From Periplaneta americana (lineage: Eukaryota; Arthropoda; Insecta; Blattodea; Blattidae), in contig NC_091125.1 of the NCBI RefSeq assembly GCF_040183065.1, positions 118,654,121 to 118,718,120 of the forward strand: 64,000 nucleotides of DNA. Reading direction: 5' to 3'. Position 1 is the stretch's first letter, and every line of letters starts with the position of its first letter. The position numbers and the translations under genes are program-made. Below are positions 712 through 3,700 of this stretch, one piece after another. A model generated the notes under the pieces. It saw nothing but the letters and a program-made list of their open reading frames with translations. It had not been told where the DNA came from and made no database searches.

Positions 712-3700
712 GTACTTAGGAAGCCTTCTGTGACAGATTCTAATGTGGCAGATTTCTACCAGTTTTGGCTTTTCTTTCTTCTTATGGTCCTCAGCTGGAT
801 TAGCATGGCTGTTGTAGTCAGCATAGGTGATGCTATCTGTTTCGAAATGTTGGGTAAGTGTACATTTAAGTTACTAATATTTAAAAAGTGAATAGTCTGT
901 AAACAATTTAATTCCAAAGCCAGTATCAAAAAACGTATAGAAAATATGTATTGATGATGAAAGATAGGTGTAAATAATAAACCAAGGTATTTTTATTGAA
1001 TTATATTTGAACTATATGAGTATAGAATATAAATAATCTTTAACATGTTACCTTTAAAGCTTGGTATTGTATAATCATCTAAGTTGTTATTTTGCCACAT
1101 GTAATGTACATAAATTTATCCAGTTTTACAATACTATAGCATCCAGCCGCCACAGTGATCTTGCGGCTAGAGTGCTGGACTTATAATCCTGTGAACCTGG
1201 GTTCGATCCCCAGTGTACCCCCAATCTATAACTTGTGTTGGGCAGGCCCGTGGTTCAGGTAACACGGATTTTCTCCGGGAAGCTCCAGTTCCCTTGTGAC
1301 ATCCCAACAGATCGTGGGTGTAGTGTAGACCAGCCACGAAGTCGCAAATACTCTCAAAGACACCTATAGTAGATGTTTGTGAAACAAATATTGTCGTGAA
1401 CAGTGTGGTGTACATTTTATGTTATTTTACCAATAGCGTACACTCTTCATTATCGGATATTTAATTCCTGGGAGATGTCCACAATTTAGAAGTTTCACTG
1501 TATTTTGATTGCTCTCCAATTACCACATAGGCCTACTTTGTTTGTAGACTGTACTTGTCTTCTTTGAGTAAACAGATATAATAAGTGAGTACTGAAGTAT
1601 GATGTAGTGTCACTTTGGTGTGATAAAGAAATACATTCTTTATTTCACAGGTAAACGAAAATATTTAAAGTATATTCTCATCTATCATTTTTCTTCCAGG
1701 AGACCAGCCTTCCCGTTATGGTCATCAACGACTTTGGGGTGCTGTAGGGTGGGGAATATTTGCTGTAATAGCAGGAGTTCTTGTAGATGAAATGAGCAAA
1801 GGAAAGTCTCAAGAGGACTACACTATAGTCTTTTATATGATGCTGGTCATGCTGTTACTTGATGTTTTCGTGTCTTCTAAGATAAAGGTCAGTAAATGAC
1901 TCACTCTCTTCTCCTGTGTCCCCCAAATGTTTCAGAAATTCCTGTCTTGTTATAGATGAATGTTGGTTAGTATGGTGTTTAATGTTCACCTATGTGGAAA
2001 TGAAGCTTTCTTTCATCTACTGGGTTGTAGAGTTGGATAATGTTCGTAACCTTAGATGGAGCTTCATAGATCAGTATGTGATCTCCAGCCGTTGGTAGAT
2101 TCTTTTTACACAGAATGGTGAAATTAAATTTCCAATTTGGTGTGATTACTTGGCCAGACACCAATGCTGAGTTAGAAGTGTGATAAATTGATAAATATGA
2201 TTTAGTGGTACATTCTCAAGCTTACAGAAGAAAATATATGAATACTTGCATTTTAAATATCTGTTTTACACACATAGAAGATACAAAACTATATATATGC
2301 ATAATAATGTGTGCATTTACTTTCCATTATTATTTTTTATAAGGTATTCAGATGCTGAAATGAAATCTTAGACTTTCAAAATAAAGAACACATGACCTTT
2401 ATTATACACCTTGAGATTCGGTTCAGGTACATAGAATTCAGAATCACATTAATCTTTTAGATGTTATGTGTAACATTAAGTCATACCGGTAAATGTCTTA
2501 TAAGAAATTGATGTTAAGATTATGTTATTTGTTGTATAATTCGAGAATATTTTGTTTCATAGAACACCTTTCATATTATAATTACCTCATGAATGTTCTG
2601 ATTGGTGTGTTCAAAATTTGAGATCCATAGAGTATTCGGTATAGATTTTATTTTACGAGACATAAAGAAATTTTGTATTTATTCATTTTATTTATTTATT
2701 TTTTATTTGAATGTATTTTGTTACCTTCAGTTCATTACAAAAATCGTTTAAAGTCTACTGATTTCGTTGTAACATTACCTTATATGATGAAAGAGTAATG
2801 GAACGGAGAAAAATTCTCTCTGGCGCTGGAATTTGAATCCGGGTTTTCAGCTCTACATGCTGATGCTTTATTCACTAAGCCACACCGGATACCCACCCCG
2901 GCGCCAGACAGAATCATCTCAGTTTAAGTTTCAACTCTTGGGTTCCCTCTAGTGGCCACCCTCTGCACTACGTCATAGATATCTATGAACGTAGGACTGA
3001 AGTCCACACATGTGCTGAGGTGCACTCGTTATGAGTGACTAGTTGGCCGGGATCCGACGGAATAAGCGCTGCCTTAAATCACGAAGTGATTTACGCATAT
3101 CATATCTGTGGTGTTTGGGTAAAGGGAGATAAGTCATAAAAATGAGTTCGGAGATAAATGAAAATTAAACTTGGATCCTTTATTACAAATAATTTTCTAC
3201 ACAAATAAAACACATCAACTGCTAGTATTCTTTGATTTTTGCACACCCACTTGTATAATTTAACTTGTGTGTTCATCTGAGGAACAAAATTCCAGCTGGA
3301 CAAAAAAATGACTTATACCCCTTTACCCGAACACCACAGATATATCCCAGCCAACTAGTCACTCATAACGAGTGCACCTCAGCACATGTGTGGACTTCAG
3401 TCCTGCGTTCATAGACATCTATGATGTAGTGCAGAGGGCGGCCACTAGAGGGAACCCAAGAGTTGGAACTTAAACTGAGATGATTCTTTCCGGCACCGGG
3501 GTGGGTATCCGGTGTGGCTTAGTGGATAAAGCATCAGCATGTAGAGCTGAAAACCTGGGTTCAAATCCCGGCGCCGGAGAGAATTTTTCTCCGTTCCATT
3601 ACTCTTTCATCGTATGATGACGCAGAATATTTGCATGGAAATATCATATGTACTTCGGTACATTAAAATAATATATATTACCTTATATGTTAAACTCCAG

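What the first reader, a model, noticed from the sequence alone, without database searches (positions are those of the whole stretch)
2783..3615. Palindrome with two outward tRNA-like genes, each with a T-run terminator
The arms are near-perfect inverted copies, and each holds a 71-base tRNA cloverleaf with 7/4/5/5-bp stems and a GTA anticodon loop. In tRNA orientation TTTTT follows about five bases after the acceptor, then the element ends. This is neither a SINE (no retroposon body or tail) nor an ordinary MITE (arms carry pol III-like units). It could be a non-autonomous element whose termini are pol III transcription units, or an inverted tRNA-like pair that spreads by a DNA route.
Basis: partly seen in the sequence, partly recalled or inferred. 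Interest (0 to 1): 0.72.

Follow-up and report, generated by a model that had tools for sequence, protein, structure and literature searches.

The report
tRNA-bearing Penelope-type mobile element family
The palindrome is one copy of an abundant small mobile element, probably in an insect genome, that carries a tRNA-like gene and appears to be copied in the manner of Penelope retrotransposons, which explains its mirror-image copies and suggests that these little-understood elements have tRNA-bearing parasites of their own.

Summary
The palindrome and its two outward tRNA-like units are real, but the element does not end at 2783/3615. It spans 2787-3676 inside one 13-bp target-site duplication (TSD), and a separate MITE sits in its centre. 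It belongs to an abundant family built from a 383-nt unit (tRNA-like u215-285, T5 u291-295), found as single, tandem and head-to-head copies. In 41 of 42 independent two-ended insertions one outer end is near u383 (A) and the other near u320 (B); inner ends are scattered; TSDs are mostly 12-13 bp. Penelope-like elements (PLEs) of the same genome follow the same rule in 6 of 6 palindromes examined (TSD 12-15 bp). A purified PLE protein is reported to start reverse transcription at two adjacent RNA sites and to extend both target strands. Best explanation: a non-autonomous, tRNA-bearing element mobilised by a PLE, by an RNA route. No partner PLE was identified, so this rests on the shared insertion pattern, not on shared sequence. 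The tRNA module evolves more slowly than the unit's body, but the base before the anticodon is mostly C, so decoding is unlikely. A second tRNA-like family (L041, one copy read) has the same layout.

The parts
2774..2786 (.). Left target-site duplication ATTACCTTATATG (13 bp)
   Evidence: the repeat finder D1; TSD score 13 against a shuffled mean of 5.9
2787..3104 (-). B arm: unit read on the minus strand; outer (short) end at u317, inner end near u382 of the preceding unit
2809..2813 (-). T5 run after the left tRNA-like unit
   Evidence: T-run kept across copies
2818..2889 (-). Left tRNA-like unit (ARAGORN tRNA-Tyr GTA)
3105..3340 (.). Nested MITE, flanked by TA at 3103-3104 and 3341-3342 (30 of the first 37 terminal positions match in inverse orientation); not part of the element itself
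3343..3676 (+). A arm: about u51 to u383; outer (long) end carries the hairpin ATGTAC-TTCG-GTACAT and then TTAAAATAATATAT
3508..3579 (+). Right tRNA-like unit (ARAGORN tRNA-Tyr GTA)
3584..3588 (+). T5 run after the right tRNA-like unit, inside a predicted small hairpin
3677..3689 (.). Right target-site duplication ATTACCTTATATG
34193..34807 (+). Host Penelope-like element, 5'-truncated, GIY-YIG-like C-terminus read by eye (34249-34749; no Pfam match), short inverted left end, 10-bp repeat ATATGGATAT at 34183-34192 / 34808-34817, longer left and shorter right end. Not part of the element; the host's own example of the pattern
34736..34764 (+). Hammerhead-like core CTGAAGA...CGAAAC of the host PLE (motif match only; Rfam does not report it)

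Best explanation
A non-autonomous, tRNA-bearing retroelement family copied by the machinery of a Penelope-like element (PLE). An RNA of one or several 383-nt units is bound by a PLE protein. The protein cuts both target strands about 12-13 bp apart. Reverse transcription starts on one strand at site A (u~383) and on the other at site B (u~320); each cDNA stops at a variable upstream point, and the two cDNAs are joined head to head. This gives a palindrome with outward tRNA units, one long and one short end, and a TSD. Template jumps or multimeric RNA give the tandem copies. Shown here: anatomy, end rule, TSDs, scattered inner ends, the same rule in host PLEs, slow evolution of the tRNA module. 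Inferred: the RNA intermediate, supply of the protein by a PLE in trans, the order of steps, and that the tRNA-like unit serves as an internal pol III promoter.
For: Arm-selected sample: 40 loci, 35 with both ends read, 35 of 35 with one A and one B end (17 with A on the left), 31 of 35 with TSD score 8 or more against shuffled flanks (segments). L003 and L006 look like one duplicated insertion, which leaves 34 and 30. Tail-selected sample: 12 loci, 10 new and independent: 7 A/B, 1 A/A without TSD, 2 one-armed. Of 101 segments in 49 loci, 94 have their 3' end at A (51) or B (43), while 5' ends are not clustered (scan 11, null mean 10.0, null max 15). Host PLEs: 6 of 6 palindromes followed have one long and one short end and TSDs of 12, 12, 12, 13, 13 and 15 bp (no shuffle control was run for these); the window's own PLE has a longer left and shorter right end with a 10-bp repeat. 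Published PLE biochemistry: two adjacent internal start sites, the 'tail' between them, both strands cut and extended, tandem copies (PMC11167929, parts 1-2 of 4 read); shorter inverted pLTR, optional 31-bp tail, TSDs of 8-10 bp (PMC3846280, passages). tRNA module: 20/1280 non-CpG mismatches against 184/3054 in u1-214.
Against: No PLE with sequence similarity to the unit was found: no convincing blastn match to 28 GIY-YIG loci, 26 of them PLE-like (best E 0.83); these are a sample and mostly show only 1-1.5 kb downstream of the endonuclease domain. The unit has no hammerhead core, which some PLEs and the animal retrozymes have. The T5 lies between the tRNA and both start sites, so a pol III transcript that stops there could not be the template. 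tRNA stems are not better kept than loops (151/4746 against 78/3277 mismatches; 53 single changes keep a pair, 87 break it; 2 double changes, 1 of them compensatory). One A/A insertion exists (L094, duplicated as L093). Two of the seven A/B insertions of the tail sample have TSD scores of only 8, and 4 of 35 in the first sample score below 8.
Confidence: 0.75

Rival explanations
1. The unit is the pseudo-LTR (leader) of a still unseen autonomous PLE that has a tRNA in its leader, so these copies are internal-deletion derivatives of that PLE and not an independent SINE-like parasite.
For: PLE leaders form direct and inverted repeats of about 200 bp with an optional tail (PMC3846280, passages). 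An ATG lies at u321, at site B (read by eye from the consensus); in the anole PLE the start sites fall near the start of the ORF (PMC11167929).
Against: None of 26 PLE-like GIY-YIG loci, most with 1-1.5 kb downstream, matches the unit. In all 12 tail-selected loci the tail is attached to a unit. Both are samples.
Confidence: 0.3
2. A tRNA SINE mobilised by a LINE, with inversion by twin priming.
For: TSDs of 10-16 bp, fixed 3' ends and 5' truncation also fit LINE-type priming. SINEs with tRNA heads are known in a cockroach (PMC9191728, passages).
Against: Both arms often include the same tRNA and 3' region, whereas twin priming on one single-unit RNA leaves arms that do not overlap (recalled knowledge; a multimeric RNA would weaken this). 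The second start is at one site (u313-328) in nearly every copy. The tRNA is not a 5' head: 214 nt of the unit lie upstream of it and a T5 follows it at once. Host PLEs share the end rule; LINE insertions were not tested for it.
Confidence: 0.12
3. A DNA transposon (MITE or foldback element) whose terminal inverted repeats carry tRNA-like units.
For: Long inverted arms and TSDs are present.
Against: The two ends lie at different unit positions, about 62 nt apart, in 41 of 42 insertions; TSD length varies; tandem arrays; one-armed truncated copies; arms truncated at scattered points.
Confidence: 0.03

Closest known systems
Penelope-like elements (Penelope/Poseidon, GIY-YIG type)
   Same: Two RNA start sites with a tail between them, head-to-head inverted and tandem copies, 5' truncation, TSDs; the same long/short rule was measured in 6 PLE palindromes of this genome
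   Different: No ORF for reverse transcriptase or endonuclease; only 383 nt; carries a tRNA-like unit with a T5; no hammerhead core found
Animal retrozymes (PMC7229834, passages read)
   Same: Non-autonomous, monomers of a few hundred bp in tandem; its authors suspect PLEs as the mobilising elements
   Different: Retrozymes are defined by a type I hammerhead ribozyme; here a tRNA-like unit and no hammerhead core
tRNA-derived SINEs, e.g. Blattella germanica Sbg1-9 (PMC9191728, passages)
   Same: A and B boxes within a tRNA-like unit, short, dispersed, TSD
   Different: There the tRNA is the head of the element and at least one (Sbg8) has an RTE-like 3' end; here the tRNA sits at u215-285 with a T-run right behind it, and insertions are palindromic with A/B ends
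Schistosome SM-alpha (SINE-like retrotransposons with a hammerhead; named in PMC8490949, passages; its S. japonicum counterpart only in the reference list of PMC3653858)
   Same: Short SINE-like repeat
   Different: Carries a hammerhead ribozyme; its insertion ends were not compared here

Membership tests
Penelope-like element (structural signature) | Two alternative 3' start sites separated by a short tail | tested here: met
   94 of 101 segment 3' ends at A or B; 41 of 42 independent two-ended insertions have one of each
Penelope-like element (structural signature) | Tandem and head-to-head inverted copies within one TSD | tested here: met
   e.g. L036, L039, L040
Penelope-like element (full member) | ORF with telomerase-like RT and GIY-YIG endonuclease | tested here: not met
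   The unit is 383 nt long, too short to code for it
Non-autonomous PLE | Sequence shared with an autonomous PLE of the host | tested here: inconclusive
   No match to 28 GIY-YIG loci, 26 of them PLE-like; only a sample of the host's PLEs, without their 5' parts
Animal retrozyme | Type I hammerhead ribozyme in the monomer | tested here: not met
   No CUGANGA core on either strand of the unit; Rfam reports none, but Rfam also misses the host PLE's motif, so only the motif search counts
tRNA SINE | tRNA-like pol III promoter as 5' head of the element | tested here: not met
   tRNA at u215-285 of 383, followed by T5 at u291-295; segment 5' ends not clustered anywhere
tRNA SINE | 3' end shared with a LINE | not tested
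   No LINE 3' end was compared
tRNA SINE | Intact A and B boxes | tested here: met
   A box TGGCTTAGTGG exact in 93 of 113 units, B box GGTTCAAATCC exact in 91 of 113
MITE / foldback DNA transposon | Both ends are the same terminal inverted repeat, with a fixed TSD length | tested here: not met
   Ends differ by about 62 nt; TSD 10-16 bp

The most novel reading that the evidence does not exclude
PLEs in this lineage support a class of tRNA-bearing parasites, with several different tRNA types, that stand to PLEs as SINEs stand to LINEs. A complete PLE-type insertion uses one tail-site start and one internal start, one per target strand, so the palindrome and its asymmetry are the direct trace of a two-strand, two-site priming complex.
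Probability: 0.5. Interest if true: 0.82.

Novelty: new variant of a known kind. Interest (0 to 1): 0.66.

Why it matters
How PLEs insert is an open question; PMC11167929 describes its protein as the first active PLE studied in vitro. A short, abundant and young element with dozens of readable insertions gives a clean record of each event. The near-perfect rule of one A and one B end, shared with PLEs of the same genome, predicts that the two target strands are primed at different RNA sites within one insertion. The in vitro work saw no difference between strands in start site, so the prediction can be tested directly. If the element is moved by a PLE, SINE-like parasitism extends to the third class of eukaryotic retroelement. 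It would also explain tRNA-gene palindromes that might otherwise be annotated as tRNA genes or MITEs.

Tried and rejected
Rejected: DNA transposition (ends differ, tandem arrays, scattered truncation). Rejected as unproven: a hammerhead hidden in the junction of tandem units; a UGAUGA...GAAA resemblance was seen by eye, but the core motif is absent. Not supported: reverse transcriptase stops at hairpins or at the tRNA edges; inner ends are not clustered (scan 11, null mean 10.0, null max 15 in 500). The tRNA fold as such is not shown to be selected. The first conservation counts used loci chosen for similarity to the tRNA arm, units away from the query still give 70/3129 for the tRNA against 361/8517 for u1-214. 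The tail-selected sample is the fairer one, although its reference consensus comes from the arm-selected loci and part of the T-run hairpin (u297-303) lies in its query. Led nowhere: exact pattern scans of viral contigs and genome contigs (0 hits; the tool warns that near relatives may be left out); PF26215, an accession recalled from memory, is not in the library; papers PMC4209133 and PMC8557442 are not held. Copy numbers are first-look candidates, mostly unscored.

Rows dropped or treated specially: L012, L022, L028 and L034 (one-armed) and L031 (left end at u339) are left out of the A/B count. L006 is counted as a duplicate of L003 (inferred from reverse-complementary TSDs on one contig), L093 as a duplicate of L094, and L085 is the window copy. 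In L021 the counted element (163-556) is not the one that the query hit (1286-1680, one-armed). L033 and L037 are each read across a gap of several hundred bases taken to be a later insertion. The L029 TSD lies in a TA repeat and is unreliable. maps exact ends for 27 of the 35 loci only. For host PLEs I followed 6 of about 10 head-to-head pairs seen by eye; a further PLE (L036/L043) gave no TSD.

Full report
What is there. The window lies in a 3.23-Gb assembly of 91 contigs; seventeen contigs of 138-229 Mb were seen. From recalled knowledge this fits a cockroach such as Periplaneta americana; no tool named the species. The palindrome is real: 272-nt arms, 94% complementary, with an ARAGORN tRNA-Tyr(GTA) call on each arm, 2818-2889 (-) and 3508-3579 (+), both above Rfam's tRNA cut-off. 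A T5 follows each unit.

Boundaries. The right arm goes on past 3615 to 3676, and the 13-bp sequence ATTACCTTATATG is found at 2774-2786 and 3677-3689. The element is therefore 2787-3676 with one TSD. Its left end is at unit position 317 and its right end at 383. In its centre lies a separate MITE (3105-3340, TA on both sides) that is itself repeated.

The family. Searching with the left arm gave 3170 first-look candidates, of which 40 were scored, at 95-100% identity. These 40 loci were read. They are built from a 383-nt unit, numbered here from a tandem copy in L039. The tRNA-like unit is u215-285 and the T5 u291-295. Copies are single, tandem (for example L023, L024, L034, L036, L039, L040), inverted pairs, or both.

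The end rule. In 35 of the 40 loci both outer ends could be read. All 35 have one end at A (u378 to u8 by blastn) and the other at B (u318-328); A is on the left in 17. For 27 of the 35, with the TSD taken off, the last unit base is u316-321 at B in 24 and u379 to u2 at A in 21. The TSD score was 8 or more in 31 of 35, 22 of these with length 12 or 13. One pair of loci is probably one insertion, leaving 34 and 30. A second sample chosen by the tail (43 matches from 40 scored of 203 candidates; 12 loci cut out, 10 new and independent) gave 7 A/B, 1 A/A without TSD and 2 one-armed. Being chosen by the A tail, that sample was not biased against A/A. Over 49 loci, 94 of 101 segment 3' ends are at A or B, while 5' ends are scattered. 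Fixed 3' starts with scattered 5' ends are the trace expected of reverse transcription.

Comparison with host Penelope-like elements. The window holds a PLE fragment with a GIY-YIG-like C-terminus (34249-34749; recognised by eye and by its relatives; no Pfam match), a short inverted end, a hammerhead-like core and a 10-bp repeat at its flanks. A GIY-YIG search gave 108 matches among 150 scored of 7667 candidates; the best one reads like a bacterial UvrC (by eye). By eye about seven PLE families are present. Six head-to-head PLE pairs were followed to their ends: 6 of 6 have one long and one short end, differing by about 31-42 nt, and TSDs of 12, 12, 12, 13, 13 and 15 bp, without a shuffle control. 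The unit element thus inserts like PLEs of its host, with a longer tail (about 62 nt).

Literature. PMC11167929 (parts 1 and 2 of 4 read) reports that a purified anole PLE cuts and extends both target strands and starts reverse transcription at two adjacent internal RNA sites, the sequence between them being the genomic 'tail', with no apparent difference between strands. PMC3846280 (passages) describes inverted pLTRs, a 31-bp tail optionally present at one of them, and TSDs of 8-10 bp; so the asymmetry itself has been noted before, and what is added here is how strict it is. PMC8969392 (passages) describes tandem and inverted copies and 3' extensions. PMC7229834 (passages) proposes PLEs as movers of animal retrozymes. 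Ten searches listed no title or abstract on a tRNA-bearing or SINE-like element moved by PLEs; most subscription papers and Repbase lie outside them, so this is no proof of absence.

The tRNA-like unit. In the tail-selected sample (10 loci) the tRNA has 20/1280 non-CpG mismatches against 184/3054 in u1-214; the T-run hairpin has 12/427 and u304-318 7/405. tRNA plus hairpin is lower than the body in 10 of 10 loci, in L086 only barely. In 113 units the A box is exact in 93, the B box in 91, and GAGAATTTTTC after the acceptor in 103; the base before the anticodon, U in decoding tRNAs (recalled), is C in at least 81 and T in at least 30. Stems are no better kept than loops. This favours a promoter role over a decoding or purely structural one. 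Since the T5 lies before both start sites, the template RNA must cross it, by read-through or by pol II; this is unsolved.

Partner. The unit shows no convincing similarity to 28 GIY-YIG loci, 26 of them PLE-like. So 'moved by a PLE' rests on the shared insertion signature and not on shared sequence. No hammerhead core is in the unit. The Rfam negative does not count, since Rfam also misses the host PLE's motif.

A possible class. L041 361-915 holds a second tRNA-like family (ARAGORN tRNA-Asn GTT; T-run; tandem plus inverted; one long and one short end; TSD 14 of 15 matching); one copy was read. In the window, 38766-39070 is another inverted pair of tRNA-like units with outward T-runs, and 25760-25993 a tRNA-like fragment between inverted ends; their TSDs were not established. 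The motif AGMGAATTTTTCTCC, chosen after seeing these, occurs 5 times in the window with up to 2 mismatches, 2 of them in the element itself, against 0.32 expected. A genome search for the second family did not complete.

Verdict. A real and abundant tRNA-bearing element, found in no listing of my searches, that inserts by the Penelope pattern. I put 0.75 on PLE mobilisation and class it as a new variant of a known kind. The strict one-A-one-B rule is the most useful result for the open question of how PLEs insert.

Noticed in passing
L041 361-915: Second tRNA-like family (tRNA-Asn GTT call) with T-run, tandem plus head-to-head copies, long/short ends and a TSD with 14 of 15 matching bases; same layout as the finding.
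   Followed up: partly
window 38766-39070: Another inverted pair of tRNA-like units with outward T-runs (54-nt arms, 87%).
   Followed up: partly
window 25760-25993: tRNA-like fragment with AGCGAATTTTTCTCC between inverted ends of about 66 nt.
   Followed up: partly
window 3105-3340: TA-flanked MITE of 236 bp with about 36-nt inverted ends, 2108 first-look candidates in the genome, inserted at the arm junction of the element.
   Followed up: partly
window 34193-34807: 5'-truncated Penelope-like element with a hammerhead-like core, lying between exon-like ORFs of an MFS transporter-like gene (8914-9378 and 34930-35325 match MFS_1_like).
   Followed up: partly
L045 (G000 contig C85, 1,057,713 bp): Long open frame that reads like UvrC (by eye): the contig is probably of a bacterial symbiont or contaminant.
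   Followed up: no
window 56355-57497: Remains of a mariner-type transposase (56985-57494 matches Transposase_1 and DDE_3).
   Followed up: no
L003 and L006 (C11), L093 and L094 (C2): Each pair looks like one insertion copied by a segmental duplication (inverted, about 22 kb apart; direct, about 5.4 kb apart).
   Followed up: no
L032 2117-2190 (-): A further tRNA-like unit (ARAGORN Ser GGA) followed by a T-run, not in the element family.
   Followed up: no
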